Origin: Loxodes magnus
Lineage: Eukaryota > Ciliophora > Karyorelictea > Loxodida > Loxodidae
Reading direction: 5' to 3'
DNA length: 64,000 nt
Assembly: GCA_946699065.1 (NCBI GenBank)
Contig: CAMPDV010000077.1
Span: 434,001-498,000, forward strand
Within the stretch, counting starts at the first letter, position 1. Each line of letters opens with the position of its first letter. Below the pieces are notes generated by a model. That model saw only the letters and a list, made by a program, of their open reading frames with translations, was not told the DNA's origin and searched no databases. Positions 1,463 to 55,559 of this stretch are shown here, in pieces. Made by a program: the position numbers and the translations under genes.

Positions 1463-4400
1463 TCAATTTTGCTTATTTGATTAAGCTTGAAATATTTCGA
1501 AACTTAGACTTAAAATCTATCTAATTCTAATAATTAGCTGAAAGATTAATTTTGAATAACCATTTTAAGAGATATTATTATAAATAAATCTAAGCTATTA
1601 TTGATCGTTCTGAGGTTATAACTCCTATCTCGCACGTTGAAGCCATGTTTTGAGAATTTTCTTGTTTACCTATTTTTGTATTTAACTCTATAGTTGAAGA
1701 TGATCTTGGTAGAATGATTCTCGGTTCAATCTCTTGGGAGCATCTGCAAAATGAACTCGTCTTTTTTGTGCTGGACCAATCATTTTGTCGTATTGATTGT
1801 AATATTACCTCATAAATGCGGATGATTTGGTATTATAATCGTTAATTGTATCACTGCAGTATAAGCAAATAATACGAACCCTTACATTCTATTTAAAATA
1901 CTCCTTCCACTCTGAAGCATTCCACTCATATAGCTTGTATTTTTAGCTTTGATCTTATAAAGATTTGAATTTCAAAAATAAATCTTCAATATTCTGCATT
2001 ATTTCAACTTATAAGCAGAATTTTGAATCGCAATACATGCAATTAGTATCTTTCAAATTTTCTAATATTTGCTAAATCTAAAATCTCAACTTTACGTTTC
2101 TTTTGGCTCTATTTAGCCAAAATTTTGCGATATTGATCGGATAAACCCGAAGTAAAGACATTCTTTTTTACTTTCTTTACTCAAGTCACTAAAAATCTGG
2201 CTCAGGATCTGCAACTTCTTACAACTCTGGCTCGATTGGACCATAAACTTTTCTTAGTTTATCTATTATTTTTCCTCTTTACAAAAATAAGGTTCTTGGA
2301 GTAAAAAGAATGCTAATGTGCTACTAAAGTCAATCCATATTTAGATCTAAGAACTTTACTCTGATTTCTTTATCTATCAATCGTTCAGTATCAAATTCTT
2401 TTTTCCTTACTTCTACTTCCCCTCTTGCTGCGTCTATTCTATGCCAGTTATTTATTAGCTCATAATTCTTTTTCTCATCTCTTCTATAAATCTTATAGTA
2501 CTCATTTACTAGCTGCTACGGATCTTCTTCCTCCTTTTATGGAATATTTGATTCTTGAGAATTCTATTCCTCTTCATTCTCTTCTTAAGGAACTAATTTC
2601 TATGGTATAAATCAAATTTTAAGTAAATGACTGATAAAAATAGTGCTCTTGTGTACCAAATAGCAGACTAGTAGAACTACAATAACTATTGGAATTGTAG
2701 CTTAATCATCAAAGAAGTTGTATTGCTACTACAAAATAGCTTCTGTTCCTAAGACTATTTATACTTAACCTGCTACAAATATACACATCATGAAGTAGAA
2801 CTAAGAAGAAAAGCATAACTTGTCTAGCTGCTAAATTTCTTCCTTCAACTTTTTATTTTCATCATCTTCATCATGCTTCCATCTTGTATTTCTACTTCTA
2901 AACCAAAGACGTAAATAATCATAATAGTCGTATAAAGCTCAATTGTTATATACTTCGTTTACGTTGCATAGAATTATGTCTATTGATATTTGGAAAGGAA
3001 TAATTGCAATTGCAAACAATAAATAGTATATAAGAGAATTTTGTTCTATTCCGTATATTTGTACTTGAACTATTTCATCGTAAAATATTCACATTACTAT
3101 TATTAAAATTGGCTAATAAGCACAGCCAAACCCATCTATGGCGAACGTTTTCATGGCATCAATAATAGGCTCTACTTACATCTCTTCTCCTTCTTCGGAT
3201 ACTTCAGTTATTGATGTTATTGTATCATCACCTCCTGTCTATAAAGTTTCGCTTGAACCTTCGGATGGAACCTATTCTTCATCATCTGCAGAGCCTTCCC
3301 ATTTGTCCCAGTATTCTTCTTAATCTTAATCTTACTCGGCCATCGTTTCTAAGCAATTTTAACCTGCACTTCCACTTCCCTTGCTTGAAACTTCATCTTT
3401 TTCACTCTAATCGACTTAAGATCCAGATGAAGAAGAAAACGAATCATGAGTACTTGACTAAGTTGCAATAATATTCTAAAATTATTTATAATTCAACTTT
3501 TTATATCACTTTTTCACTTTCTAAATTAAATCCATTATGGTATCGGTAACTACATTCACAACATGATCTATATAAACTCTGCCTACCATCATTATTCCAT
3601 ACTCTACAAAATAACTTGCCAAAAAATTTATAAAATCTGAAGCTCCAAAAGTAACTATCCCATTAAAAAGGGCGATAGTTATACTGAATGGAAAGAGTAA
3701 AAGTTCATTTTCAATTTTTCCTTTGAAAATTTCCTCTAGAATCATTCCACAGATTTAAAGTCCACCTATCATGTACCAAATGTAAGTGGAATAAATAATT
3801 GAATAGCTGAAGTGAATTATTAGTAAGCAAATGATAAGCATTATTGCAGAGACAAAAATCAAGTTTACTCTTTTTCAACGAATATATTCCCAAATATTCC
3901 CATCTTTTGACTCTTAAATATCTAATTTTCCACTTCTATCAGGAATCAATATTGCACAACCTAAATATAAGGCGTAAAGCCCTGATATTAATAAAGAAAG
4001 TCCACTTCTTCCTAGCCTGACTTTATAAAAGTCATACTAAGTTATTTTACTGTAAGAGCCCTAAAAATTAAAACTTACTTAGATGTTATCAAATAAGATT
4101 GAGCAATCAGTACATAATATAGGAATATCAAATAATTAACCTCTAAATATTAAAGCCAGTAAAAGAGCTGTAAAAAGCTGTGGAATCGCTCCTAGAATAG
4201 TGCCCATCATTACATTTTGTCAAGCAACACTCCAAAATTAGAAAAATTTAAACTTTTAAAGAGGAGGAGATACTTTAGGAAGCATCCTGTGGTAAAATCA
4301 GAAAATGAGGACTCCGACTACAGAAATTACTCCAATTGCAACATAAAGAAATAAATAAAAATCAACTCCAAATTTGAAGGCAATCATTAATTCCTAGTGA

Positions 4401-7400
4401 TTTAATGCTGCATAATTAACTATTAATTCATACTCAGTTACTTAATCCCCTTATTTCTGAGCTTCTGTTAACTCAATGAAGTCACTATATGTTAGCTCAA
4501 TTAAAACTAACTCCTTATTATAAACGTCTTTCTGATAATATTTAATATCTAGCGTAATAGTCGTTGGAAGTTATCCTTCTGGAGCCTAGTTTGTAGCATA
4601 GACGTCTATAAAGTTTAAGTTAGAAAATCCATCTTCCAATCAATTTTAGAGTCATTATTCTTTTGTAATAGGAGACTCAGAAATTTAAAAAATAGGAGTT
4701 AAAGATCCTGCTTAAAATCATCTTGGCTTAGAAAATGGAGCGTTGTAAGCTTCATCATATATGCAATTAGTATTTATGTCTGAGCATTCATCTGCGGTAG
4801 GTTTCTAACCAAAGCCGAAAGCAGGAACTGGTTTTGTTTCTTTTTCTGATACAAACTGACACTTAGAGTTTTATTCTATAAGACTTCAAAATGGAATGAA
4901 ATCGCCAAAACCTTTACAATTTGAGAAATATGGCAAATAAGGTAAATAAATTTGTTCCCTTCCAGCTCAGTATTCTGACTCTGTTGCAAAACCAGTAGCA
5001 GAAGCTTCACTAAATCTTACTCATTCATGCTCAATTGAAGCGAAAGAAATGGAATAAATAGGAAGAGATGGCTCACCTACAAACTTGGGAATATTAATAG
5101 GAAGCTAAATTCCCTAGCTCTAAGTAAGAGCTATGACAAAAATATTGTCTGTGTTAAGCGTTGCTCTGTTTGGCTTTGTTATCTCAACTGAAGTAATATT
5201 TACAAATAAATGCTAGAAGCTTAAGAATAATCCATTGTATAGCATTATTTTAACGTTAAAAGTTAAGTTTTGCCATGCGAAAACCATGAACTATAAGGCT
5301 TGAAATTTATCAATTTTTTCACTTTAGAAATTTTATGGAAGTTCTACCTTCTATTCCGTTTAGTTATCCGCTTGATAAACGTAAAATTGAATCTCTCAGT
5401 CTTCTTCATATATAAACTTTTATTAAGAAAGATGCCTAAGATCTATCGTAACTAATGCAACTTATCAGATGTCCAAACTAAAATTAGCATTAGGAACTTA
5501 AAGTTATAGATTTTTAACAGATGAGAGTTCTTAAGGATCTTATGTTAGAGTAATATTTAAAGGATCTCAATCTTCCACTTACTTGTTAGTATCTTAGTAC
5601 TCATCACTTTTACCACATTATAATAAGTTCGTTTTTCCTTTAACTCCATTTATTCCGGTTCCTAAGGGACATTAAGTAGGACACTCAATCTTATTGCTTT
5701 AAGTTTCTGAATAAAAATAATCATATTTAAAAGTAGCACTTGGGCAATATGCCTTCTCAGGACATTGATTAAGATTTTTATTTCTTTTAGGTGTTTATTC
5801 ATCACAGAAATATCCTGCTTAGCATTCACTATTATATTTATTATAAGAGCTGGAAGCATCTTCGCATCAATACCCTCTTGGGCAATCTCCTAAGAAATTC
5901 ATATTTGCGTTTTCATCACATAAAAAACCTTCTAAGCACTAAGTCGAATTTTTCAAGCTTTATATCCCTGAATATGCGCATATACGTTTAGGAGGACATG
6001 GCAGACATTCAAACTTTGAACTCTAGCCTCTTTCAGGATTTCACGATCCAGCAGGACATTAATCACAAATATACCTTGACTTAATTTTATATTCTCCTGT
6101 TAAACAAATGCTTGGTCATGATGTTGCAATTTAATCGCATTCATATCCAGAAGGACATTCAGAGCAGATTATTGTAGCGTTTTATATTGTATAATATCCA
6201 GCTGCACAGCCAATTTGCATAGACGTTCCAATTACAGGTGAATAATATCCAGGATCACTAGGCAGTGGATTTTAACTTCCTTTTGGACAATAATATCCTG
6301 CAGGGCAATAACCTGAACCAGTTGCGGAACTAGATCCTTCTTCGCAATACGTTCCAACTTAGCAAATAATCGGAGAATCTATAAATTAATCTACTTTTAA
6401 ATTTCCAACTCCTTTTAAGCAATAAAATCCTGATGGACACTCTTAAGGTCTTTAGCTAGTTAGAACATTTCGGATTGCTTAATATATTTCCTAAAATTAA
6501 CTAATCTAATTATTTTCTTTTTCTATCTAAATCAGTATTTTAACAAGGAGCATTCCGTCTACTTAATCACTTGAATCAGTAGCATTTACTGCCTCTATAA
6601 ATAGATCAATTGAATTTAGATTTTTCATATAATTTAATATTGTATAGTTACTTCAGCAGCATACATCTTGAGACGTATAATTGAAAAGTTTTATTTTTTT
6701 AATTTTGTTATTAATATCATTTTTTGAGTATTGAGACCAACCTTTGCATTCATTTCCTTTTAGAGTAGTTTATTCCATTATTTTACATGCTTGTAAGTTA
6801 GAAGTCGTTATCGTTCTTTCACTACAATAATATCCATCTGGACATAGAATATCTGGTATTATAAGTTATTTTTTATTGCAAACGAATCCTTATGGACATG
6901 GAAGTGGTTAAGACATCCCTTTGTACGGACATATTCTACCTATTGGACAGTCAAAACAATTTTTATTACCATGATATGGCTAATAAGTACCAGGTGAACA
7001 TTCTATAGGAAAAACATTTGCCATACCTTTGCAAAATGTTCTAGGTGGACATGGTCTTCCAGTATCTTTTAATGTTGGACAGTACATTCCTTCAGGACAT
7101 TTCCCAGATCCAAAATGCTCAACTGATCCTGGAGGACATATAAATCCTTAAGTACAAAAATGAGCTTTTTAAGCATCAAAAGTGTCATAAACAGGATTAG
7201 GATCGAATACTCCAGGTGGACAATATGTACCTCTTATATGACATAAATGAGGTGATATTACATTTGATATAACCTTTTATTCATTATTGTCACATTAATA
7301 TTTAATTTCCTAAATATTTGGATCGTTTGTCTAAGTACCAGCCTCACATCAATATCCTTCTGGACATAGTTAATTTGGCCAACTTAAACTGCACTCAGAA

Positions 7401-10400
7401 CATACTTTTCCTTTATCACAAATAACAGGATTCTCCAGACCTCTTTTTGGACAATAGGTTCCAGGATAGCAACTCTTACACTAAGTTTAAGAGGTTTAAT
7501 CTTAATAAGTTTTGACAGGGCATTTATCTGGTCTAAATAAAGTCTTTCCATCACAATAATGACCAATAGGGCAACTGATAATTGAATTTCCAATGCAGTA
7601 GTATCCAAGAGGACAATTCTAGAAATAAGTAAAATTGAGATAAGATTGAGTATATTACTGCAAATTATTAGTAACTCTCAACTTTATATTTCCTGGGCCC
7701 CAAGGTATATTATAAGGCATTTAGCATTCAAGCATTTAGTAGCTAGAGTCTCTATATATTTACGCATTTTATGGAAATATTTATTAGATATCACCGCTTT
7801 ATTCTTAAAAAGTCTCTTTATTTATGAAAGTTAATTTCTAAGAATCTTTTCGGATTTAAGCCTTTACTAAGTTAGGGTTAGCAATATCTACATTATTATT
7901 AACCTGTACAGCTATTAGGTCATCTCTGTCTAGTTAAAAGTAGCAGTACACTTTATCAGATTCCTCTAAATCTAAATTTTGAACTATAAGATACAAGCTC
8001 TTTCTGCCTTGAGTTAGATATTTATCAATATTTACTTCCTTTAAAGTTACTAACTAACTGTACTTAAACTTCTTAGTGCAGTTATAATAATCAAGCAAGT
8101 TGTTACTTAAAGAGATATAGGAATTTATTGGACTTCCATATGGCTGTGTAAAGCACTCAAGGACAGAATCGTTTATTACAAAATACTGTCAAGCTTCAAC
8201 GTCTTAAAACCTACATGAGAAATAAGGATTTTACTAGAACAACTTGAAATTTGATCCTTTTAATGTTACTTTAGTTGATTTATCGAATTCTCCTAAAAGA
8301 GGATCAATTTAGTCTACCGCAAAGTCTGGATAAGTTTGGAAATAAATTTTAGTAATGTAGCTATGATTCTACTATTAGTTCAAAGTAACGCTAATTGGAT
8401 AGTTAACAACCTAGTTTTGTATCTTGAATGATTTAACGTTGCACTAAATGAAAGTATCGTTAATAAAGATAGATTCCTAGTATTAATTATCTAAAATGCA
8501 GCTAATATTCAGATTATTATTGTAGTAGTTGGAAAATCCGTTACCTTTGAGCCAAATTAAAGAATTAACTTTGTTATTGGGCCCTCTTAAAGGCAATAAA
8601 GAGTCAATTACAGGTATTACATAGTACACAAAAGTTATATGTGAGCTTGTGTAAAGATCGTTGTCAAGAGATATTTCTAGATGCACTTTTCCTGGATAGA
8701 TGTTACCTGGAGAGGTACATTTTAACGTTTAAGAATCAACAAAAGTAGCAGGTACTATAATGCCTCCAAATTTGCATTTCAATAAGTTATTTCCTAAAAA
8801 GCTACTCAACATTTTAAAATTGTGGCCTGTAACTGTTACAATAGTACCTCCTTGCAAAGGACCTGATATAGGAGAAATTTAAGTGATAGAAGGTTCTTGG
8901 TAATAGGTAAAAGTAAAAGCTTAAAATTAATATTAACTCTAAACTAGCTAAACTTAGACAACTCCCAATCCATTACCATTATCATCAAAAATATGCTAAG
9001 GAGAGTAGCAATGAATTTTATTCTATGAAATATAGTAAGCTTCTATTTTTAAAGTTTGAGTCTCAGTACTATTAGAGCTTTTATAAAAGTGACATTTTGT
9101 AGTGTAATCATTATAAATTATATTACTACCTTACAAAACTATTCTAGTACCTCCTCTACTTGGACCTACATTAGGATAGATTCCACTAACTTAGCCAAAA
9201 TTTCTATAAAGGAAGTACATATTCTGGGATTAGGCAGTGTAGTCCAAATTATTGACTTTTACTCTCACTTAAACGTATCCTTCTTAACTACTAGTAGGAG
9301 CGAGACATGTAATTTATGAGGTTGAAATTGACTAAATTAAAACTTCATTATTCATTCATGAAGAGTAAAAATAGCATTTCACTACATCATTTTATTAGTC
9401 TACTCATGAAAAATCTCCTGTGATAGTTATTTTGGTTTATGCAGATTTATCTCCAACATTCGGACTAATTTTCTAGGTATAGATAACTTAGCTTATGTAT
9501 TGAAAATAAACATTAATGTCTACAATGCTTATTTACTATAAATCATATCTTAGCCAAATTTATACTTTTTAGGGTAAATTATAAGGAACCATACAGTACA
9601 CTTAACTATCTGATACGTAAATGGCAGGTGTTTTTGTTCATGCTAAATCTCCAAAATTGCACCACAAAGTTTCTCCTTACTAAGGGGTTAAAAATTGGTT
9701 TCCATATAGAATGATATTATATCCTCCTTAAATAGGTCCTTTTGTTATATTTGCCGAAGAAAGAGTTGGATGAACTACGTAACTGAAGACCATGTAATTA
9801 TCTTTGAATATATCATATTTGTTATTACTAACCCATATGGTAGTCTAACTGGCTTAAACTGCTTAAGGATCCAGTATTATTTAAATAGCTGTAGTATTAA
9901 TATAGGTGTGATTTAATATTTGGTAGCCTTACTAATACATTCCATTAAATTAAGAGTTATATTGTAAGGATCTTCCGTTTGATAGTACATCAAAAGTATA
10001 TTATTATTGTCTGCTGAAGATAGTTTCTAGATTACCATACGCTTGATATACTGTTAGTTCTTCTGAATTTATGAAGCCACTTCCTTTTATTATTATACTA
10101 GTAAACTGATCATAAAATCCCTTTACTGGATCTATGCTTGTTACTATACAGTTTCTAATAAATTGTATGATTATGGAATCAAAAGCTGCTGATGGACATA
10201 TTTAAGAGTCAATTTATTAAACACATAGCTAAAGGTAGATCTAACTATAGGAAGTAGTTATTATCTAATCATTGTATGTTTGAATTGTATTTTCTTAATT
10301 AAAAGAGCTATTATATTGTATCTAAGGAGCTCTACAATATATTTCAGTTGTTGAAAGAAATTCGCTGTCAAAGGTTTCTTTATCAAGAACTTAAGTTTAG

Positions 10401-12658
10401 TCTGTATTTCAGTAGCTTCATTAGCATTTTATTATTTGACTATTAATATTACTCTTCACAAAATTTTCACCTTATACTAAAAATAAAGTTCTCATATACG
10501 ATCCTTTGAGAGGAGACACGCTAACTAACTAATTATCATTGAAGTAGTTTATTTGCATGAAGTTAAGCGTTTAATTCTAGTTCTTCTACAATGTTATTCA
10601 GTAAATTCCGTTTGATAAGTAATTAGCTTCAATTGTGCATTAGAAACTAGTATCACCTATTTTATGGGCGGCTTTACTTAAATGAGTCTATGTCTTTAAA
10701 GCATTTTTAACTAAGCACTGATAGGAATCTTAAGAGTCACTTTCGCTTACTGTTAAAGAGAAAATTGCTTCTTCACTTACTAAACTTAGCTAAGGACTCA
10801 TGCTAGTAATAATAGGATCTCTTGTCAACTTTATCTACTTTCCTTGGCTAGTTCAGTTAGTTCCTTAGTTACTCGATAATTCAACTGAAAAAGTTCCAAT
10901 TTTATAAAATTAAGAAATAGGACAGAGAATTGACTAGCTATTTTAAGCAAGCTCGGCCTGAAATATATCTTAATCTCCTATTTTACAGAATAAAGAGTCT
11001 TTTTAGCTAGACAAATCTTTAGAAGTTGAATAGTTAACTATAATATTTCTATTTTGATAGTCAACTTAAAGACTTTATATCTAGATCCAGTTTATGTCTA
11101 TCACATTAATGTAGAAGTCTCCATCTATCTATATGCATGAGTAGCTGTTCTATAAACTTTAAGTTTCATCTATTTTGCAAAGTTTAGTAGTTACTTATAT
11201 TTAATTTCCACTCCATTGCTACCCATAAATGCTATAAATAGTTGGTAGTTCGCAATAAAACTTTTATAGTTCTTATGAGTATTTTAAAGTTACTTGTTAG
11301 GTCTGTTTATTTTAGTATTCACAGAAAAAATCCTACTAATATGTACTAATATAATCATGCTATATGTTTGTCAGGCTTAGGTATAAATTCTATCCACTGT
11401 CGAAATCTTAGAATGGGATATAAAATTATTAGGAGGCATCTAATAAATGAGGGTATGAAAGGATTGAGGTTTTGTAAGTGTATAGAACTTCATTGCTATC
11501 AGTTTAAATCTGTAATGTGTTTAAGATAGTATTTAAAGAGCCATCTACTGCTATCATTGGGCATTATATTTAAGTGTCTGATATTCTAGAGGCCTAAGTA
11601 GTCTATAAAAGGGAGTTCCAACTGCAATTAAGAGATTTTGCATAATTTTGGAAATGAAGACCAAAAATAGAAACTGTAGATTGATCTTTTCATTCTATAT
11701 TGTTATTCTTATCAATAAATATAGGACTTTCGTAAAATTAAAACGTTAGCTAGCTTTTCATCTCTACAGCTACTAAATAGCTCTCAATCTGTAAGCTTAC
11801 CAAAGAGTAATATTGATCTTCATAGAACTAGCATTAAAGCTTTGTATCTGATAAAACCCTTGCCTTCTTATACTAAGCATTCGAAAATTTGCATCATAAA
11901 GAATTATAGAACTTACTTCCTGAAACATTAAGAGTTAGGTGATAGTTTTTGATATATAAATTACTTGTAGGAGTAATAGAATCTACTATAGGGATAGGAT
12001 AAAAATGGACATGGTCATATTAAGAAGTATAAACATGTATCTAGTTTTAATACACATTTATAGATAAATATTAAGTAGCTGGCTGTGTAATACTCATAGT
12101 CGGTACTGGGCAAGTTAATTTATAATCATTATTACTTACTTAAGTTGCTTAATACTCATCATCAGTTTCATTCCAATAGCATTTTACTACATAGTCTGTA
12201 AAATGAGTAAGCAGCTTTGTAGACGATTCCACTTAAACAGAGGTTGTTTGAGAAACAGTTATATATTTAGGCTCAATGCTAATAGGATTTATATAGTCCA
12301 AGTATTAAAAATAAGTTATAGAGCTGTGCTAATAAACATTCCCATATTTATCAATCAATCCTATTTAGACTTAATATTTCTTAACTACCGAAATACTAGG
12401 CATTAGACACTCTATTTAAGTAGATTCTATCTTATCTGCATAATCATATTTTAGACCCTCAACGTAACACTATAATTGATAATAATCGAACATATATTTT
12501 CCAGAGAATGTTACTGATATCTATTAATTAGAAAATCCAGATGTTGGCGCAACACTATTAATCTCCGGAGATCCTTAAAATAAAGTATGGCAAGATAAGC
12601 AAGAGTTAGATCAAGAAAGCTTAAAAGTCAAATGTATTATTATTCAACTAAATATCAT
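1463..12658 (-). CDS. Giant IPT/TIG and cysteine-rich (GCC2/GCC3-like) multipass membrane protein
   Basis: An unbroken frame of about 3731 residues with TAA/TAG as Gln and TGA as Trp. I checked the phase at seven points from 12658 to 1463 and all agree, so no intron or frameshift is needed. It begins with a hydrophobic signal-like N-terminus (MIFSWIIIHL). Residues about 40-1600 carry repeated IPT/TIG modules, for example SPISGPLQGGTIVTVTG near residue 1256, with further GP..GG turns near 9150 and 9722. Residues about 1670-2350 are cysteine-rich repeats such as CYPGTYCPKRG, like the ephrin-receptor-type GCC2/GCC3 modules common in ciliate surface proteins. A membrane region follows from about residue 2770 (VAIGVISVVGVLIFWFYHR) with several more TM segments, an acidic Ser/Glu stretch near 3070-3165, and a Gln-rich cytoplasmic tail. 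Likely a cell-surface receptor or adhesin; ligand unknown. The start is the first ATG before the signal peptide. The TGA at 1463 is the preferred stop but a later TGA is possible. Confidence 0.85.
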
Positions 12659-17331: not shown

Positions 17332-20300
17332 ATGTGATAGAATAAATACAAATTATTTATACCTATTTTAGTTTTTTCTTTTTGCCTTTAAGCTTCTCTA
17401 ACTGATGATATCTATATAACAACTCCTGATGTTTTTAAGAACTTAAACCTATCTATTTCTAACGGCACTTTTGAGTTCCCTTATACTTCACTTTCGTTTG
17501 CTATTTTCAATTTGTAGGAGGAAAAGTCTTACTAACTATTTTTATCTCCACATAATCATGTTCTTGATTGCTTAGATTGCTTTTCCTGTTAGAACAGATG
17601 TGAAATTCTACGAGGAGGGGGTTAAAGAATTCTTTCTAAGTTCATAACAATCCAGAAGTTTCAAAATTGTACAGAAGACGGAGAAAATCAGCAAATGTGT
17701 CTCAATTAGTTGAATAGCTCTAATATATTTCTTAATAGCTCTGAGGTATTTTTTAATCTGCAAAATGACTATCTTTCAGTCAAAGATATTACAATACAAG
17801 GATCAAAATTATGCGATTTGAATATACAATAAGAGTAAGGATGCATTTCTATAAGAAAAGCTAGCTTTATTTAAGCCTTTGACTCATATGTAGAATTGAT
17901 GAATTTGGTCGTTACTAATTTTACACTTACTAGAGATGCTAAATCATATCAAAATATTGGAGTTGACTAACTTAAAGCCTTTTAATCATTTTTTGACTTC
18001 TAATTTACATTCTAGATAATATAGACTTTTAACTCAGTAGTTAATATAGACAGTTGCTTGGTTACATTGAATAAGATGTAAATAATAAAAATGAACTAAA
18101 GCTACCTAACAATAAGAAATAGTATATTCAGAGAGAACATTGGATTAAATGGAAGCATATACTATTCTAACTCAACTCTGAGCATTTAAGATTCAGTCTT
18201 TGCTAATAATATAGGGTAATTTGGGGCTGTAATGTTTGGATAAAATTCTCAAGCTTTTCTCTCTAAAAGCAATTTCTAATCCAATATAGCTCAAAACTAA
18301 GGAGGTGTATCTTATTCCTTAAATTCATCAATACAAATTACTTAATGTGTCTTCAATAGCAATAAAGCTTAAAGTGGTGGAACGTTTTATCAACATGAAT
18401 CTTATTGTGAATAAATTTCACTCTCCAAGTTTACTAAAAATGAAGCTAATGAAGGAGGGGTCTTTTATTTTTATTCCACTTAGATAAATTAAATTCAGCA
18501 TAATCAATTTGACAATAACCAAGCATATGTATAAGGAGGAGTGATTTAGCTGGTTAACTCTTATCTTAATAAGATATAAAATTGCTCTTTTAATGGTAAT
18601 TTTGCGGATGATAAAGGAGGGGCTTTTTTTCTGTCTAACTCTGATCTTAATTCAATGATAAGTATGTATTCAATTTAAAGCAAAGCTTATAGTGGAGGGT
18701 TTGCTTTTATAGAAGACTCAAGAGTGCTAATTATAGATAAAAGCTAGTTTGAAGATAATAGTGCAGTTCATTGTGGAGGTGTCTTTCAGCTAAGATGATC
18801 TGAGATTAAAAGAATTTCAAATATTGCTTCAGCAAATAGCTAAGCATACTTCGGAGGATTTTCTTGTATTTAGAATTCAAAAATATTTGAGATAAATTAT
18901 TGCTCTTTTGATTTAAACACTGCATGAAGCTTCGGAGGCTCTTTCTACTTTGCAACATCTTATGTTACTTATATAAGAAACATTTCTTCCTCAGGAAATA
19001 TAGCATATAATGGTGGGTTTTCCTCGATCGAATACTCAGATATATTTCTAATAGCTAACAGTTCGTTCAATTTGAACCTTGCTTATAGCTATGGAGGAGT
19101 TTTTTAAATAGCATAGTCAAATATTGAATAGTTTAACGGCCTTTTATTTACTTAGAACAGCGCAAGATATGGAGGTGCTATTAGAGTTGCAAGTTCCAAT
19201 ATCGCTTCGATAGATAAATGTTCATTCGATTAAAATACTGCTGATTATAGTGGTGGGGTAATTTACATATTTAATTCAAGATTCAATAATATTAGCAATT
19301 CTTTAATCTCTAATAGTAAAGCTAATACGTAAGGAGGATTTTTATACATAGAAAGATCAACCTTATCTACAGTATATAACAGTAAGTTCTACGAAAACAT
19401 AGCAGTTAACGAAGGAGGCGCTTTCTATATCATCGACTCTTTAATTACTAGTTTCGTCAGTATTCTGTCTAGTAAAAATAGAGCTTTTTTAGGAGGATTT
19501 GCTTACTTAGAAACTTCCACTTTATAATAAATATCTTAGTGCTAGTTTCAAGAAAACTATGCAGAGTTAAATGGTGGAGCATTTTATCTATTTAAGACGA
19601 ATATAACAAACATTGACAGTGTTTTTGCAACCAAAAACTAGGCACTTAATAATGGAGGGTTTTCTTATTTCGAAGAAGCTTAAGTTTATATAATAGAAAA
19701 CTGCACATTCGAAAAGAACCAGGTAATAAATAATGGAGCAGGATTTTACTTATAAAAGTCTAGTTTATAAGAAGTTAGTTATGTATCCTCATATGATAAT
19801 CAGGCAAACAATGATGGAGGATTATATTATTTAGCAAAGTCTCAAGTATAACTTATTTAGAATAGCTGTTTCCAAGGTGATAAAGCTAATAATTCTGGAG
19901 GTGTTATTCATATCAGTTCAGATAAAATATAATACTAAACCTTAGTAAAAAATTGCTCATTTTTAATGAATAAAGCAGCTAAAGGAAGTGTTGCTTATTT
20001 TTCTAAGCAAAAAATTACTTTTTAAGAAGTGATATTCCTATAGAACTCAGCTAGCTTGTACGGAGCTCTTTATATTGATCAATCTGAAATGAATTTTTTA
20101 ACCATTAAAGTTCAATTAAATTAAGCAAGTAAAGGTGCCTTTATTTACAGTGTTATCTCAACTCTTTTTTTAGATACAATTGAAAGTATTGAAAACAGAG
20201 CTTTGGAACAAGGAGGAGTGATCTATTTGGAACATGGGAATTTGCACATCTAAAATTTTACCAGCTTCTAAAATAAAGCACCACATGGATCTTCCCTATA

Positions 20301-23300
20301 CTTAACTTAAACCTTGCAAATCAAAATTTAAGAAAGCCTATGTTATAACAATACTTCTTAAGAAGGAGGAGCGGTAGAAGTACAAAACTCTGAGTATCTA
20401 GAGATAAGCAAAAGCATCTTTAAAAGTAATTAGGCGTTTTCAGTGGTTTAAGTCTAGTAAGTTAACTTGATGATTATTGATTTATCTTAATTCACTGAAA
20501 ATTGAGTAATGTATGGAGTTATAGAAACCAAAACAGCTAATCTGGAGATTTATAGCAGCTTAATATAACACAATGAAATGAACAGTGGAACTCTAATAGA
20601 GGCAGTTAATAAGAATTTTACTCTTATTAGCAGTTTAATTTCTCATAACAGAGCAAGCAAAGGCTATATGGTTTAGCTGAACTACGTTAAAGGAAAAATT
20701 CTTAACTCATTATTTGAATACAACTTAGCAATGAAAGGCGCTTCTATCATTTCTTACCTGTCTAAGTATTAAATTAATGGAAGTTTATTTTATAAGAATG
20801 AAGCGGAAAGTAGAGGAGGTGTAATAGAGTCTAGTTAGGATAAAATATAAATATACAACTGCTCTTTTATACAAAATAAAGCTTTAAAAGGAGCAGTTTT
20901 TTCTTTCTACTTGGTTAGTGCAATAATAGAGTAAATATGAAGTCAAGGAAACCAAGCAGCTGTAGGAGCTATAATAGAAGCTGATCAGTCTAATATTTCC
21001 CTATATAACTCATAACTTACTAATAATTCAGCAGATGAAGGAGCTATTTTTCACGCTCAAATGACTAATTTAATTTTCTTATCAGTTAGCTGTAAGGAAA
21101 ATCACGCTACTAATAAAGGAGGAGTTGGGTACTTAGAGTTAAAAAGTCGGTTTATTATGAAGAACTCAGAAATAATGAATAATGAAGCTAATGAGGGAGC
21201 TTTCCTCTACTCATAAAATGCCAATTATTAAATAAATAATTCCATAATTATGTATAATAAAGCTATTTCTGTCGGAATCTTAAACCAGTGAACTTCAACC
21301 CTTTCAAGTATAATTCTTAACTCATAAATTCATCTTAATTATGGAAAGGTAGCAACTATCTATTTATACCAAAGTTGCTTGTATATCACTAGAACTTCTA
21401 TCGCTAGTAACTTCGCAAACGACTAAACGGCAGGAATTTATTCTTACAATGCAACTGTCTTTGTCAATCAGTCAATTTTTAAGAATTAAGAAGCAACTAC
21501 AGGAGCCTTTATTATAGGATAATTTGATAGTAAAATTGAAGTAGCCTTCTCTTACTTTAATAACAGTAAAGGTAAGTAAGGAGGAGCTATTTATGTGGTT
21601 CAATCTAGTTTAGATTTAGATTTCAATAAGTTTGAAAATATAGAAGCTAGTTAGGAAGGAGGAGTAATATTTGCTATAAACTCAAGAGTTAGCATTCTAT
21701 ACACTTAATTTTACAAAAGTCTATCTTATTACTATGGATCAGTTATATATGCTAAAAATTCTGAAATAGTTGTACATTTTTGTATCCTTTAGGATTATAC
21801 TAATACAGCCCTATTTATCGAAGAGAAAAGCTTATTGAACTTAACTTTCTCAGTGCTGACTAATGGAAAAAGCTATAAGTAATATGGTTCTGCTATTTAT
21901 TCTCTGGACTCTTTGTTGAATATAGAAAGAAGTTAGTGCTCTAGCCAGTAATCAAAGACAGGTTCATGCTTTGTAATACTTAACGAGAAACTGTCTTATT
22001 AATATTACATTGCTTATAATACTTTTAGTAATAACACAGCTTAAAACTAAGGAGGAGCTGGGTTTTGCCGAAACGCAAATATAACTTTCTTATAGAATAT
22101 ATTTGAGGGTAACTAAATAAAAGGAGATGATAGAGAAATAATGAAAGGAGGAGCTCTAAGATTAGAATGCGATTAGTTATAGATATGCTAATATGCTATC
22201 TAATATAATCTATTCCAGTATAATAAAATTCTAAGTGCTAATAGTGAAGGAGGAGCAGTGTCATTTTAAGGAACCCTTCCAGTTTTTATTCCTGATATTT
22301 TTGGTAAAGAATCTTGCTCTTTATTTAGAGGAAACTAAGCTTTTTATGGAAGTAATATAGCATCTTTCGCTTATTTGCTTTAGAACGAATCAATTAAGGA
22401 GATAATGGATCACTGTACAAATAGTAGCTAATAAAGGAAGATAATGTCACAATTACCTGGATTTCCTATAATTTAGAGATATGTTCATATCACTGATATT
22501 TTCGGCTAGCTAGTAAAAACAGACAATCTTTCAATAGTTAGTGTATTTACTGATGACTCTGAACTATCAGGCAAAACTAAAATTTAGGCTTAGCTTGGAG
22601 TTTATGATATTAAGGAAATAATTATAAAAGCAAAGCCTGGGAAATTAGTTCACTTATAGCTTGAAACTAGCATTATCGACATTAATAATCTGCCATATGA
22701 TAGATCCATAAGTAATAAAATAGCTTTCGAAATATAAATATCCTAATGCTTAAAAGGGCAAGTTTTAACAGAAAATAATTAATGCTTAGACTGTCTTTAC
22801 GGCTAGTATTCTTTAAATAATAGTGACTTAGTTTGTAAAGAGTGTGGAAAAGAAGCTAAATGCTATGGAAGTGATCTTATTACTCCAAAAAAAGGATATT
22901 GAAGAGAGAGTTTTAATTCTGATACTTTGCTTAAATGTCCTTTATCATCCGCATGCTTAGGAACCTTTTTGGACCAAGATTGGGTTTAACTTTATATTTC
23001 AACTTAAGATAAAAATTAGAGAGAAGAATATAAAAGTAGAATAAACTGATAAGGATACTGCTAACTAGGACATAAAGGAATTTTATGTGATGTATGTGAA
23101 TAAGACTGAGCAAAGGATAGTTCTAATTAATGCTAAAAATGTGTGAATTAAAAATCTTAGGTAGTTTTAGTTTCTTTCTTGCTAATAACTATACTTTGTG
23201 TATTTTCCTATTTAGTTATCTAAACTCTAAGATAGGCATAAAAAGAAGATTAATACTACAGTGTTATTTTCAAAATTTTCTCTAACTTCATGTAGTTTTC

Positions 23301-31650: not shown

Positions 31651-32843
31651 GGTTTAATATTCTTAAAAGAAAACAACAAGAAGATGATATAATAATTCCA
31701 TCAGCAAAATGTATAAGTAAATATAATAGGAAAAAAGAATGGGATTAAATCATATGTTATTTCAATCTAACTAGCATATAACTTTAAAAATTTATTAAGT
31801 AGGAATTTTGAAGATGTCCCAAATATGAAATGTGCAATATATAAAATAGATATGTTACAGTTAATTAAGACTTAGAATAAGGGACAGTAGATAGTATGAA
31901 AGTAAAATTGATATAGACTGAAAACTCCTTAAAACATATACGACTTAAGTAACATATATTTTGATTCAATTTTTTCATTAACATCCTGAACTTGGAAAAA
32001 GATTAGTAAATTTAAGTGAATTAGTAAGGATAAAAGAATATCTGCATCTATGAAAGTGGACTATCGACAGGATCCGAGAAATTTAGTAAAGATTAATAAA
32101 TTAGAAAAATAAAGATGGGGCTTATAAACATTAATGCAATATCTAGTAAATACCTGAATGTAGAAGATTTTATCAGAGATAACAATATATACGTTTTATC
32201 ATTAAATGTAATCTGATAAAAAGACGAATTTCCTCCACTAATAATAAATGGATATAGAATATATTTAAAAAACTCAGGAAAAGGAGGTGTGTATGTCTAG
32301 TGGTAGGAGAAGAATTGAATAATATAGAAGTGCAAATAGAAGGTGAGGAATAATTGAATCGATTAGTTAAAATTAAACTGGATAATATTTTAATCGCGTC
32401 TTGTTACAAGCCCGATAGTGGGAAAAATTAAGATATCAAAGATTAACTTTATGAACTTCTTAACATATTGCTAAATAAATTTGATAAGAATCCACAAATA
32501 CTGATAGGAAATTTCAACGCCCTTTTATAAGGTTTTGGAGAAAATCCTGAAAATAATTATAATAATACATATGGATTATAAGAATTTCTATTAAAAAATG
32601 ATCTTGAAATAAGGAATGATAGTAACATTAATACATGTATACACAAAGGAACTGGATAATTGTATTGTAATTATTATATCATTATAAACAACCATTTGAA
32701 TATTAATTAATTTGCAAACTTCACTGTTCATAATAATAGTTTATTTTTTGATCATACTCCAATCACTGTCTATTTTATTTATAATACTATAATCTATTGG
32801 GAAAAAATAACTCAAATTAAATATAAAGTACATAAGTAAAAAA
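31651..32843 (+). pseudogene. LINE ORF2 copy 2, AP-endonuclease-like domain
   Basis: From about 32096 the plus strand encodes an APE-type endonuclease (EEP family): an N-terminal INAISSKYL segment, LDNILIASCYKPDSG, then PQILIGNFNALL, where the usual GDFN Asp is Asn, and finally FDHTPITVYF with the catalytic DH. This domain nicks target DNA for target-primed reverse transcription. One or more small frame breaks lie near 32295. Upstream, 31651-32095, weaker readable text may be the end of ORF1 or the ORF2 start. The frame is cut at 32843 by a gag-only insertion and resumes after 33705 as reverse transcriptase. Confidence 0.7.
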
Positions 32844-32846
32844 AAG

Positions 32847-33719
32847 ATGTAAAGTTGCGGATTGAGAAAAGGCATTTATCCTGCTCCCGCCAGGAAGGAG
32901 GAGTAGAAGAGTGACTAGTAAACTGTACAAATTTAACCAAGCAAAAGAATCTAGCACTTACCTAGTACCTCAGTGGTCTAAGAGCAACCTAAGGAATAAT
33001 AAGAAACGTAAGTTCGCTCCTTTGCCATTGACTAAGTCCTTCTTGAAGAAGAGGAAGAAATAAACTACAAATAGTTGGCTTTGAACTTAGTCAAGGAGGT
33101 TGCCAAACTTAAATAGGAGCTGGAATAGCTCAGAGTTTATGCTGAGACGGAGGCTTAACTTTCTGATCAACGAGCTATCAACTCCGAACGGGAGCTACAG
33201 GTTATGTGAAATATGACTGAAGAGTAGTCCCGTTAATAAAAAATAGCAAATGGCAGGATCGACGACATTTAGAAAACGGTCTCAGTACTAAAGATTTAAA
33301 ATGATCCAGTGCCAGCTGTGAGGTAAGTTATGATGGAAATTGAACCGGTTCAGCCTATCAGCCAAAATGTTCAGAACTAGGTTGCAAAAAGACCTGTTAA
33401 GAAATGTTTCCAATGCGGCAGCATCTGACATTTGTTCCGCCAGTGCAAAAAATTCAGGTAGGCTCAACAGCAATATTGAAATAAGTAATATCGACTATAG
33501 CAGAACTACCTAACAGCACAAAGGGCTAGAGCAAGACTTTAATAAGAAAGGTTAGACAAAATGTATTGCAGCCCTAACGGATATATTTATAAAATTAAAA
33601 CTTAGAATGCATTAAGCTACCCTCAAGGCAACTAAAGACCTGTGTTGCAAAGCTGGAAGGAAAACCAGTTTAATAAACCCATCTACAAGTAGATAAGATG
33701 TAAAAAAATCAGTTCATGA
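32847..33719 (+). CDS. Gag-like protein with coiled coil and CCHC zinc knuckle
   Basis: 290 codons closed by TGA, uninterrupted. Order: an N-terminal LRKGIYPAPARKEE segment shared with the 47 kb copy (LRKGFFPAP), a Glu/Gln-rich region, a coiled coil around residues 75-150, and a CCHC knuckle CFQCGSIWHLFRQC (spacing C-X2-C-X4-H-X4-C, with TGA encoding Trp). A basic tail follows with KMYCSPNGYIYKIK, a motif also found in the other copies. Such proteins bind element RNA and form the RNP. The ATG and the TGA lie in or beyond the duplicated target, so both ends are probably accidental; the original start codon seems lost. Codons are richer in G/C than neighbouring host genes. Confidence 0.75.
32854..33694 (+). 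mobile_element. Gag-only retroelement insertion, 841 bp, with target-site duplication
   Basis: It interrupts the ORF2 copy between the endonuclease and the RT. Identical AAGATGTAAA repeats at 32844-32853 and 33695-33704 bound it. It carries only a gag-like ORF, with no RT or endonuclease. Its length matches the independent 836 bp insertion at 47124-47959. Confidence 0.75.
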
Positions 33720-52098: not shown

Positions 52099-54600
52099 AT
52101 GGGGCAATCTAAAAGCTGCATCTAATGCTAATGTCATTTCGACTCTTAAGCAATCATTCTCATAACTCTTCCATGTGGACATAAAAAATGCTAGAATTGT
52201 ATTCTTGAAGAATAGTTAAAAGGCGGTTTTAACCAGTGTCCAAAAGGAAAGTGCAAAAAAATCTATTTCAATGATCAAAAAATTTGGAACTATAAAGACT
52301 AATCAAAAGAAAATGAAATAGAAAATGAAAAAGACTACTTATAACTTAATCTTAAAGAAACTAAAATCGAGACATCCGTATTAAAAAACTCTAAATAAAT
52401 AAAAGTTTAGATTTTAACTTAAAATGAAGAAGAAATAAACTTACTAGTAGAAGAAGGAGAAACAATTGAATAACTAAAATAGAAAATAGAAAGGTTTGAA
52501 GGAATTGATCCTGAATTTTATGAACTTTATGGAGGAAAAGACAAATTAGATAGATAGTTTTGTATAAATAAAAAGGAGAACTAAGAAAAAATTTAATTAG
52601 AACTAAGGTTTAAATATTGTAGCAAATATAATATTTAGGAAGTAAGTAAATAAGAATAAATATAGATGGTAAAAAATAAAAATAGAAGGTAATTAATAAA
52701 TAAACAGTTTTTGAAACTTTGAGATAATAATACGGTAAAATAATGAAAGAATAGAGCGTAAAATATTATCTTAAATTAGAAAGTAATAAGTAATCTAAAG
52801 TAGGAGAAAGTAAAATATGTAAAAGAAGGTTAAATAGAATTCAAGCGAAGTAAAGAATAAATATATAGGAGGTAACTTTTAAAAAAGTGTGTAATATATT
52901 TAATAAAGTGAGTAAGTAGATAAAGCTAGAAAGTAATAAATTTAATTTTAAGAATGTAAAAATAATTAAAAAAGATTGTAAACAATATCTAAGAAAGGAT
53001 GTATAAATTAAAATTAGAATGTAAAAAATAAAGAAGATTGTAAAGAAATAATTCAAAGTTGGTAATAAGTTAAATAAGAAAGTAACTTAATTAATATATA
53101 GCGAGTAATAATAACAAATTAAGGAGGTAAAAATTAAAATAAGATGGTATTCTATTTAATATAGAATGTGAGATATATTAACTGTTTATAGATTGCAAGT
53201 TATTTAAAATAATTATAGTGAGAAAGAGATTTTAAATATTTATAGATTGTAAAGTGTTTAAACAATTATAGATTGTAAGGTATTTAAATATTTATAGGGG
53301 GCATTATATTTTAAATATTCATAGAGAGTAGAATCTTTTAAATATTCATAGAGGGTAAGATTTTAAATGTTTATAGATGGTAGGATATTTAAAAGCTTAT
53401 AGAATGTGCGATTTTAAAAATGTATAGAAGATAAGATATTCTTAATATTTGTAGAGGGTAAGATATTTTAAATGGTTATAGATTGTAAGTTATTTAAATA
53501 TTTATAGGAAGTAAGATATTTTAAATTACTACAGATGGTAAATACTTTAAACATTTATAGGAAATAAGATATTTTAAACCTTCATAGTGAGTAAGATGTT
53601 TTAAATAATAATAGTTTGTATGATAATTTAAACATTTCTAGGAAGTGAGGTATTTTAAATATTTATAGCTTGTAGGATATTTTAATTGTTTAAAGAAGGT
53701 TAGATAGTCTTAATACTTATAGAGAGTACGATATTTAATTATTTATAGGGGGTAAGTTATTAAATCATTTATAGAAAGTAAGATTTTTAAAATATTTATA
53801 GAGGGTAAGCTATTTTAAATATTTATAGAATGTAAAATATATTAAGCATGCATAGGTGGTAAGTCTTTTTATATTAATAGATTGTAAGCTATTTAATACT
53901 TAGGGAGTAAGTTATTTTAAATATTTATAGAATGTAAGATATTTTAATATTTTGATTGTTATATATTTTAAGTATGTATAGATGGTATGGTTTTTAGAAT
54001 TTATGGATGGTATGAAATTTTCAAAATTTATAGCTTGCATGATAATTTAAAAAATTGTAGCTTGTATGATATTTTCAAAATTTTTAGGGAGTAAGATATT
54101 TTAAATGATTATAGATTGTAATAAATGAATTTTTACATATAGCTTGTATTATAAATTATCACAGTTGGTATCTTATATTTATATTAGATGGTATAAGTTA
54201 CCAAAGGCGGTAAATTTTTACTTTAGGTATTTTTTTAATTTTAGATTGTAAGAATTAAATATAAGATGGTTATATTTTATTTAAGCTTGTATTTATTTAT
54301 ATGAGTGTGTAATCTTTAAGTTTAGTCAGTAAATATAGTTATATAGAATGTAATATGATTTAATATTTATAGGGGGTATTTTATTTATAATAAAAGAAAG
54401 TAGATAACTAATTTTAGGTATTTATTTACTAGAGAATGTTATTTGTATGATTTCACATTGCAGATACTTTATACTAGCTTGTTATTTATCTATTTATAGA
54501 ATGTAAACTATTTTATCAAAGTTAGTTTTTTATTATATAGAGTGTAAGCTTTAATTAAAGTCGAGATTGAGATAACAATTAACTCTTTTAAATTTTATCC
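52099..54600 (+). CDS. RING finger plus ubiquitin-like protein, extended through a micro-exon array
   Basis: Residues 1-52 form a C3HC4 RING: ligands C7, C10, C26, H28, C31, C34, C47, C52, with CGHKKC and CPKGKC. The start MGQSKS also fits an N-myristoylation pattern, though C7 is a zinc ligand. Residues about 100-170 are a ubiquitin fold: IKVQILTQNEEEINLLVEEG, then TIEQLKQKIERFEGIDP and an IQLELRF end, parallel to ubiquitin's [20 protein letters not shown]. A RING and Ubl in one chain suggests an E3-type ubiquitin ligase or adaptor. Unspliced, the frame would end at a TGA (52720-52722) after 207 residues. From 52619, however, the DNA becomes an array of GT..AG segments separated by trinucleotides. 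Removing them keeps the frame open and gives acidic/aromatic text such as DYALFKWEKSQFKFEIEI. The final exon starts at 54561; its end is not determined. Confidence 0.75.
52619..54560 (+). repeat. Array of about 70 ultra-short intron-like units separated by trinucleotides
   Basis: Units have the form GTAAG-(AT-rich)-TATAG, followed by exactly three variable bases, then the next GTAAG. In 52619-53160 and 54120-54560 the AT-rich parts differ from unit to unit and are about 16-24 bases, yet AG-NNN-GT persists. In 53160-54120 the units are near-copies with a 26-27 base period, core GTAAGATATTTTAAATAT. A few longer exon-like blocks interrupt it (27 bases at 52708, 9 at 52801, about 24 near 52826). 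Some units depart from GT: GC at 53194, 53301 and 54037, GA near 53221, AT near 53430 and 53564. Two ambiguous units lack an AG near 53960 and 54004. Confidence 0.8.
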
Positions 54601-55559
54601 TAAACGATTCTTGTTTTTTTTTATTTTTTATTTAGATATTTTTTCTATTCTAGAGTTATTAACATTTTAGCTTTCTATTTTATAGATCAAAGAACAGATA
54701 ATTTTCTATTTTTAACATTTTTTTATGAAAAGGGATAGATTCCTTTTAATAAGAGTTTTTATTTGTTATTTTAATCACATTTTTATTAACTTTTTCTTTG
54801 CTTCCCTCAATTTATCAAAACTTGATATTTCTATCAGTTAAATAAATTATCATTAGATTTTAATTTCTTTATTTATTTCTAAATCTATATATATAAAAAA
54901 AATGTTTTTTCGGCAAATATTTTTATTTTTTATTTTTTCTAATATGATTATTCGCATAATTCTTTAACTATTTTTGTTTATTTTTTACCTGAAGTTACAC
55001 TTATCAATTTCTTTTTATTATTTAACTATGCTTTTTTGTTGATCTTATACTCTAAATCAAAATTATTTATTTTTGCTTTATAGATACATCTACATAATCT
55101 AGTTGCTCTTTTAAATAAAATCTATAATCAATTATTTGATTAATTTAAATTAGGTTTGCGTTCATTTTTTCTACATTTTCTATTTTCAACTCAAAATATA
55201 AAAATCATCTTTATATTAATATATATTTCTACTAACTATATTCGATTAATAACTTCTATTTGCTATATTTAACTTATTCTCCTTATTTTTTTTCTTATTA
55301 TATGTAAAATTTTCAAATTATGAGCTTTTTCCATAAATAAGCAAATCTTTTAGATTTTTAATTCAAACTGCTGTTTTTGTTGTATATTTTTCTTTCAATT
55401 TTTACTTAGAGCATAATTATTTCTTCTACTATACAATATTTAATTTATCTTTATACTTTCCTTTTAAGCAGTTAAATCATTAAAAGCATAGAGTTTATAT
55501 TCAACTAACTACATTTTTAAGTATTTGCATGATTTTTTATTTTTTTAATAGTAGTGAAA
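54561..55559. other. T-rich region after the micro-exon array
   Basis: The last exon of the RING/Ubl gene enters here, but the sequence turns very T-rich. If one more intron-like segment beginning GTTTTT near 54613 is removed, an open frame with membrane-like text runs about 240 codons to a TGA near 55320. The minus strand also reads as Lys/Gln-rich protein. I cannot choose. Confidence 0.3.

What the first reader, a model, noticed from the sequence alone, without database searches (positions are those of the whole stretch)
52619..54560. About 70 consecutive three-base exons separated by tiny introns
Directly seen: AG-NNN-GT recurs about 70 times with 16-24 bases of AT-rich sequence between, starting just after the ubiquitin-like domain. 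The trinucleotides vary widely while flanks obey splice-like rules, even where the AT-rich parts have diverged completely. Joined in phase 1, the exons keep the frame open and give hydrophilic, aromatic-rich text (for example DWKYYDASWNSFDG). That is not what the surrounding AT-rich satellite-like DNA would give. If spliced, nearly every codon over a long stretch is interrupted by an intron, which I know of in no described gene. Units that break GT (GC, GA, AT) and two without AG count against simple spliceosomal removal. Alternatives are a decaying array, or removal of the segments at the DNA level.
Basis: partly seen in the sequence, partly recalled or inferred. Interest (0 to 1): 0.96.

Follow-up and report, generated by a model that had tools for sequence, protein, structure and literature searches.

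The report
Genes with one-codon exons
In a ciliate genome, genes with ubiquitin-like domains appear to carry protein tails encoded one codon per exon, with tens to over two hundred tiny introns in a row, an architecture I found in no described gene, though no RNA was available here to show the splicing.

Summary
At 52619-54560 a RING-like plus ubiquitin-like gene (ATG 52099) runs into about 75 tiny introns; a parse with no exon-length preference makes 66 of 77 exons exactly 3 nt. Assembly size and code (TGA=Trp in frame) fit the Loxodes magnus macronucleus. The gene belongs to a large family (150 places scored of 842 candidates); in 41 aligned copies AG precedes 934 and GT follows 907 of 943 exon slots. 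Seven further regions carry arrays of 87-223 introns with 929 of 992 exons of 3 nt; in five a Pfam ubiquitin domain enters the array in phase 1. Across introns the last base of an exon depends on the first two of the next (z 13.4), and TGA across the junction is avoided (13/124 against 42/84, P 3e-10), as joining and translation in phase 1 predict. Against: no RNA evidence; in the window's own family synonymous changes show no excess in phase 1; some phase-2 signals remain. A decaying satellite and DNA-level removal are disfavoured. Why introns of the variable middle are near-identical while exons differ is unexplained.

The parts
52099..52618 (+). Upstream coding exon: ATG, RING-like finger, then ubiquitin-like domain; TAA/TAG read as Gln; ends one base into a codon (phase 1)
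   Evidence: Pfam ubiquitin PF00240 E 9.5e-6 and 1.1e-5; 150 places scored of 842 candidates in the same genome; synonymous excess in this frame over 38 copies, 193 against 151 expected, P 0.002
52619..52638 (+). First intron (20 nt)
   Evidence: GT in 41 of 41 and AG in 41 of 41 aligned copies; length 20 in 39, 19 in 1, 21 in 1
52639..53167 (+). 5' constant part: 23 exon slots, 20 of them 3 nt, one 27 nt, one 6 nt, one 21 nt, parted by introns of about 16-24 nt
   Evidence: Alignment of 41 copies: AG before 934 and GT after 907 (GC 21) of 943 cells; in 12 diverged copies exon columns had no gaps, intron interiors 4.7% gap pairs
52708..52734 (+). 27-nt exon inside the array
   Evidence: Aligned exon in other copies; one or both splice flanks differ in L011, L014 and L052
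52829..52849 (+). 21-nt exon inside the array, preceded by intron 52810-52828
   Evidence: Aligned 21-nt exon in paralogues
53165..54145 (+). Variable middle: tandem introns of mostly 22-24 nt near GTAAGATATTTTAAATATTTATAG, each followed by a variable 3-nt exon; holds the units that break GT or AG
   Evidence: Parse; unit found 35,563 times in the genome with up to 3 mismatches against 102 for the reversed pattern; intron interior pair identity 0.68, exon 0.34, about what exon composition gives
54146..54560 (+). 3' constant part: further 3-nt exons with short introns, less regular than the 5' part
   Evidence: Parse and alignment with paralogues
54561..54610 (+). Start of the last exon; its end and stop codon are not fixed for the window copy
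   Evidence: Alignment; by eye, in phase 1, six paralogues (L010, L012, L013, L015, L016, L033) reach a TGA some 20-25 codons on, L009 and L032 have TAA there, and the window copy has no TGA in that frame nearby

Best explanation
This is the 3' part of a protein-coding gene whose tail is encoded almost entirely by exons one codon long. The spliceosome most likely recognises each AT-rich intron of about 16-25 nt as a unit (intron definition) and removes them one after another, so that each splice lengthens the upstream exon by three bases and leaves the next 5' splice site ready. The joined triplets are read in phase 1: every intron sits after the first base of a codon. Shown from sequence: exon length of exactly 3, GT/AG kept across paralogues, dependence of bases across introns, avoidance of TGA across junctions, and phase-1 entry from a ubiquitin-like domain. 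Inferred: that transcripts exist, that the ordinary spliceosome does the work, the order of removal, and that a stable protein results. A unit of one 3-nt exon plus one intron is frame-neutral, so tandem duplication or loss adds or removes one residue, which would let the tail grow.
For: Parse without exon-length preference: 66 of 77 exons 3 nt. Inside the parsed stretches of seven other arrays, pairs of GTA..AG stretches lie 3 nt apart 738 times, 1, 2, 4 or 5 nt apart 2, 3, 1 and 1 times (longer distances rise to 159 at 26 nt, where one unit is skipped); the same DNA read backwards gives 1 at 3 nt. The parser that favours 3 finds nothing scoring 12 or more in 13 window stretches on both strands (26 pieces) or in 10 shuffles of one array. 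41 paralogues keep AG (934) and GT (907) of 943 cells while intron lengths vary. Five of seven other arrays follow a Pfam ubiquitin domain in phase 1, E 6e-7 to 9e-12. Information between the last base of an exon and the first two of the next: z 11.2, 12.6, 13.4. TGA across the junction 13/124 against 42/84, P 3e-10; TAA/TAG P 0.002. Codon-usage order test, phase 1 pooled z 3.25, P 0.002. Intron lengths resemble the RNA-seq introns of Loxodes magnus (mean 19.3, PMC11441545); the seven arrays have mean 20.55.
Against: No RNA or peptide data. In the window family, changes in the constant exons are less often synonymous in phase 1 than expected (26 against 35, P 0.99) and slightly more often in phase 0 (45 against 35.5, P 0.04); one search gave the same direction, and a count of distinct changes favoured no phase. 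The window array alone gives a null exon-order test. The cross-intron information is not confined to the phase-1 pairing: the phase-2 pairing has z 5.7 and 7.4, and x2 with next x2 3.6, x3 with next x3 2.7, partly because these share bases. Phase 2 also has a weak codon-usage signal (z 1.7, P 0.05) and some TG|A depletion (P 0.001). L063 leans to phase 2 and L067 to none. No significant Pfam domain in any joined tail, no convincing similarity between tails, and no processed or contiguous copy found. Introns of length 3n are not depleted in the seven arrays (32%) nor among the 24-nt middle units. Several window units lack GT or AG.
Confidence: 0.84

Rival explanations
1. The introns are real and spliced, but the tail is not translated to a functional protein: translation stops early, or the array only delays or regulates the transcript.
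For: Window-family exons lack a synonymous excess in phase 1; no significant domain in any tail tested; the stop of the window copy is unclear.
Against: TGA avoidance at the phase-1 junction and Cys codons in phase 1 beyond shuffles in L061, L062 and L064, though not in L063; 19 long internal exons score least badly in phase 1 (-7.0 against -31.6 and -14.1).
Confidence: 0.1
2. A decaying or neutral 27-bp satellite whose unit happens to look like AG-NNN-GT.
For: The middle of the array is a tandem repeat of period 27 and 54, with units losing GT or AG; the genome is rich in tandem repeats (PMC11441545).
Against: Flanking units and the seven other arrays have introns of many lengths and no common unit that I saw, yet keep 3-nt exons and splice signals; dependence of bases across introns.
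Confidence: 0.04
3. The AT-rich segments are removed from DNA during macronuclear development, not from RNA.
For: The organism is a ciliate, and some ciliates excise short TA-bounded segments (recalled).
Against: The assembly, which still holds the arrays, has the size reported for the Loxodes magnus macronuclear assembly (PMC11441545); that paper did not detect classical eliminated segments; the ends obey GT-AG.
Confidence: 0.02

Closest known systems
Tiny spliceosomal introns of karyorelict and heterotrich ciliates (Loxodes magnus, PMC11441545: mean 19.3, mode 17 nt; heterotrichs mostly 15 nt)
   Same: GT-AG, AT-rich, about 16-25 nt, in the same kind of genome with TGA as Trp or stop
   Different: The passages I read describe introns in genes, not runs of tens to hundreds with 3-nt exons between; lengths of 3n are not depleted in the seven arrays here
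Micro-exon genes of schistosomes (recalled, not read)
   Same: Many consecutive symmetric micro-exons building a variable protein
   Different: Those exons are longer and their introns long (recalled); here nearly every exon is one codon long and each codon is split by an intron
Single very small exons, e.g. the 1-nt exon of Arabidopsis APC11 (PMC4674806, abstract and introduction read)
   Same: Shows that spliceosomes can use exons of 1-6 nt
   Different: A lone small exon; that abstract gives 3 nt as the smallest alternatively spliced and 6 nt as the smallest constitutive exon known before it
Introners, mobile introns that spread through genes (recalled)
   Same: Near-identical introns repeated many times
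   Different: I did not search for transposon ends or target duplications; the repeats are tandem, in one gene, every three coding bases

Membership tests
Loxodes spliceosomal introns | GT at the 5' end and AG at the 3' end | tested here: met
   907 GT plus 21 GC of 943 and 934 AG of 943 in 41 copies
Loxodes spliceosomal introns | Length mostly 16-25 nt, under 16 rare | tested here: met
   the parsers used lower limits of 14 or 15 nt and upper limits of 27-42
Loxodes spliceosomal introns | Lengths that are multiples of three depleted | tested here: inconclusive
   4 of 23 modal lengths in the 5' constant part, but 32% in the seven other arrays, and 24 nt is the usual length in the variable middle
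Loxodes spliceosomal introns | Removed from RNA | not testable with these tools
   No RNA data held
Karyorelict genetic code (table 27) | TAA and TAG as Gln, TGA as Trp in frame | tested here: met
   46 TGA, 30 TGG, 246 TAA, 127 TAG among 5709 codons of three predicted window genes
RING plus ubiquitin-like gene family | Ubiquitin domain over Pfam's cut-off | tested here: met
   Window PF00240 25.7 and 25.5 bits against cut-off 25.4; paralogue L010 22.1 bits, below it
RING plus ubiquitin-like gene family | RING domain over Pfam's cut-off | tested here: inconclusive
   Window RING models all under their cut-offs; paralogue L010 zf-C3HC4 26.6 bits against 21
Micro-exon genes | Long coding stretches in consecutive symmetric micro-exons | tested here: met
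   For the tails only: 929 of 992 exons are 3 nt in seven arrays; defining feature recalled
Micro-exon genes | Variant proteins by alternative splicing | not testable with these tools
   No RNA data held; defining feature recalled
Ciliate internal eliminated sequences | Bounded by TA repeats and absent from the macronucleus | tested here: not met
   Ends are GT-AG; segments present in an assembly of macronuclear size, the macronuclear origin being inferred; defining feature recalled

The most novel reading that the evidence does not exclude
Loxodes writes the C-terminal tails of a whole superfamily of ubiquitin-like proteins (with RING, kinase or coiled N-terminal parts) one codon per exon. 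The near-identical introns of the variable middle act as frame-neutral spacers: duplication, loss or exchange of intron-plus-codon units adds, removes or swaps single residues without a frameshift, so the gene structure itself generates hypervariable tails in hundreds of gene copies.
Probability: 0.35. Interest if true: 0.98.

Novelty: categorically new. Interest (0 to 1): 0.95.

Why it matters
If transcripts confirm it, spliceosomes can remove tens to more than two hundred consecutive introns with 3-nt exons between, which tests how little exon a spliceosome needs, whether introns alone define splicing, and in which order they leave. It would be a gene architecture with an intron inside nearly every codon of a long stretch, would explain part of a genome's apparent tandem repeats as coding DNA, and offers a model for protein variation codon by codon. 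Ordinary gene finders and RNA mappers would probably miss such genes.

Tried and rejected
Reading phase: phase 0 (one exon, one codon) looked best from substitutions in the window family, with the first intron as coding. I set it aside because that segment keeps GT and AG in 41 of 41 copies and varies in length like the other introns, and because five other genes enter in phase 1. A frameshift by a 4-nt exon at 52846 was dropped after alignment showed a 21-nt exon. A codon-usage gene finder drifted and reported overlapping antisense genes, so only three of its genes were used for the codon table. An excess of GTAA..TAG of 25 nt in the window did not look like introns by eye. tRNA and Rfam: nothing. 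Processed copy by joined-exon DNA and contiguous copy by protein: none; both answers warn that an empty result shows nothing. Similarity between tails: best E 0.012 in phase 0, 0.11 in phase 1, 0.13 in phase 2. The first 3' alignment used wrong anchors for several copies and was replaced. A pooled-shuffle information test was replaced by within-array shuffles.

Choice of arrays: the further arrays were found with a pattern that itself demands three 3-nt exons between AAG and GTA, so the seeds are not independent, but the arrays run far beyond them; only the first listed places, on contigs up to C89, were looked at. Ten such regions were fetched (L061-L070); seven gave arrays, while L065, L068 and L069 gave no chain scoring 30. 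Of the loci L057-L060 only L057, a family-like copy, gave a chain. With no exon-length preference the main chains had 3-nt exons in 110 of 149 (L061), 93 of 124 (L062), 49 of 83 (L063) and 96 of 130 (L064). L066 has the same RING-like plus ubiquitin-like layout as the window gene and may be a distant member of its family. In one search, 38 of 41 copies were used; cells with wrong splice flanks were masked and five misaligned cells were set by hand. One search used 18 copies for the RING-Ubl part.

Full report
Identity. The window is contig C77:434001-498000 of an assembly of 705,730,643 bases in 7843 contigs. Three predicted window genes use TGA 46 times in frame beside TGG 30, TAA 246 and TAG 127, among 5709 codons. 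That is the karyorelict code, and the size equals the 706 Mbp given for the Loxodes magnus macronuclear assembly in PMC11441545 (passages, all of section 9). The species and the nucleus are therefore inferences. The same paper gives introns of mean 19.3 and mode 17 nt, no detected classical eliminated segments, and 231 Mbp of tandem repeats in that assembly. The passages I read say nothing of runs of 3-nt exons; they mention orphan introns, excluded from a figure, without explaining them.

The observation. AG-NNN-GT is 72-fold in the stretch and scarce elsewhere. Parsed without preference for exon length, 66 of 77 exons are exactly 3 nt. In the outer parts the introns run mostly 16-20 nt and look unlike each other; in the middle they are mostly 22-24 nt and alike. 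The upstream exon reads as a RING-like finger and a ubiquitin-like domain.

A gene family. The unit TATAG-NNN-GTAAGATATTTTAAATATTTATAG occurs 35,563 times with up to 3 mismatches, against 102 for the reversed pattern. The upstream protein finds 150 scored places out of 842 candidates. The eight first-fetched arrays (L009-L016) are all related to the window gene by sequence, with a constant 5' run of exons, a variable middle and, in most, a constant 3' run. Over 41 copies and 23 slots, AG precedes 934 and GT follows 907 of 943 cells, 21 of the rest being GC. In 12 diverged copies the exon columns have no gaps while intron interiors have 4.7% gap pairs; point differences are no rarer in exons (0.211) than in intron interiors (0.171). 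The first intron is like the others.

Other genes. A pattern for three successive AAG-NNN-GTA units found 1194 matches against 44 for the control. Seven of ten regions fetched from it hold arrays of 87 to 223 introns, with 929 of 992 exons of 3 nt by a parser that favours 3. A count with no such favour, inside those stretches, gives 738 intron pairs 3 nt apart and 2, 3, 1 and 1 at 1, 2, 4 and 5 nt; the same DNA read backwards gives 1 at 3 nt. In five of the seven, the exon before the array ends in a Pfam ubiquitin domain read in phase 1: L061 6e-11 (after a kinase domain, 7e-20), L062 9e-12, L064 7e-9, L066 3e-10, L070 6e-7. L067 follows a kinase domain (8e-34), in another phase at the parse start. 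For L063 only one upstream frame was tested and gave nothing. L066 may be a distant member of the window family, as it has the same layout.

Are the triplets joined and read? If they are, bases on the two sides of an intron should depend on each other as parts of one codon. They do: the information between an exon's last base and the next exon's first two is 0.190 bits against 0.057 in within-array shuffles (z 11.2, 647 exons, four arrays), z 12.6 over seven arrays (883 exons) and 13.4 with the longer L062 (877 pairs). Other pairings are weaker but not all null: x1 with next x3 gives z 0.3 and -0.3, x1 with next x1 0.6 and 2.5, x3 with next x3 2.7 and 1.9, x2 with next x2 3.6 (only), and the phase-2 codon pairing, which shares the junction bases, 5.7 and 7.4. 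When the next exon starts with G, GA follows in 13 of 124 cases after T, which would make TGA, but in 42 of 84 after other bases (P 3e-10). TAA and TAG are also low (66 of 117 against 182 of 249, P 0.002), but that could come from splice-site avoidance; AG formed at junctions is itself low (35 against 66 expected). A phase-2 control was null for TA|A/G (P 0.63) but showed TG|A depletion (39 of 110 against 46 of 76, P 0.001), perhaps in part because L063 leans to phase 2. Codon usage in phase 1 beats shuffled exon order, pooled z 3.25 (P 0.002), with z from -1.0 to 3.4 by array; phase 2 has pooled z 1.7 (P 0.05). Cys codons in phase 1 exceed shuffles in L061 (27 against 14.7), L064 (37 against 22.7) and L062 (14 against 8.7), not significantly in L063 (3 against 1.4).

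Results against. The window array alone shows no codon order in phase 1; its TAA/TAG count is low (3 against 8.2, where 16 arrays were each given four uncorrected tests). In the family's constant exons phase 1 has fewer synonymous changes than chance (26 against 35) and phase 0 slightly more (45 against 35.5, P 0.04), while the upstream exon, as calibration, behaves as coding (193 against 151, P 0.002). A count of distinct changes favoured no phase. Pairwise pN/pS in phases 1, 0 and 2 was 0.50, 0.70 and 0.87 with 21 distinct sequences, but 0.57, 0.57 and 0.82 with 35. So selection on the tail's amino-acid sequence is not shown for this family. No joined tail has a significant Pfam domain.

Unexplained. 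In many copies the introns of the variable middle are almost all identical (33 of 34 exact in L024, 34 of 35 in L025, 30 of 33 in L021), though in L011, L031 and L033 few are (1 of 10, 0 of 8, 1 of 17). Yet the exons come from a small alphabet (AAT, ATG, TGA, ATT, GGA and others). Among unit pairs of one copy with identical 24-nt introns, exons differ at 0, 1, 2 or 3 places in 1303, 839, 1146 and 1968 pairs (18 copies; pairs within a copy are not independent). Point mutation at one rate does not explain that. Shuffling of units, replacement of introns alone, or selection for differing codons are candidates.

Literature. Searches of the held library, of which I saw the listed top rows and abstracts' beginnings, showed nothing on runs of single-codon exons. 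One related paper was opened: PMC4674806 (abstract and introduction), a single 1-nt exon. Schistosome micro-exon genes and introners are named from memory.

Noticed in passing
variable middle of family copies, e.g. L024, L025, L021: Introns almost all identical while the 3-nt exons between them often differ at two or three positions.
   Followed up: partly
G000 C77:486099, 505898, 526110, 545350: Four copies of the RING-like plus ubiquitin-like gene lie about 20 kb apart in tandem on the window's contig.
   Followed up: no
L061 (G000 C89:611000-619900): A protein kinase plus ubiquitin-like gene whose tail parses into 222 exons, 215 of 3 nt, within about 5.5 kb.
   Followed up: partly
window 2186-12658 minus: Very large predicted open frame with TIG domains and in-frame TGA codons.
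   Followed up: partly
window 17332-23109 plus: Long open frame with beta-helix and Chlam_PMP-like repeats.
   Followed up: no
window 32115-33220 plus: Predicted gene that by eye looks like a retrotransposon endonuclease.
   Followed up: no
G000 C32:1232544-1288873, C537, C930, C1577, C2553: Long tandem arrays of ordinary ubiquitin matches (150 of 1235 candidates scored).
   Followed up: no
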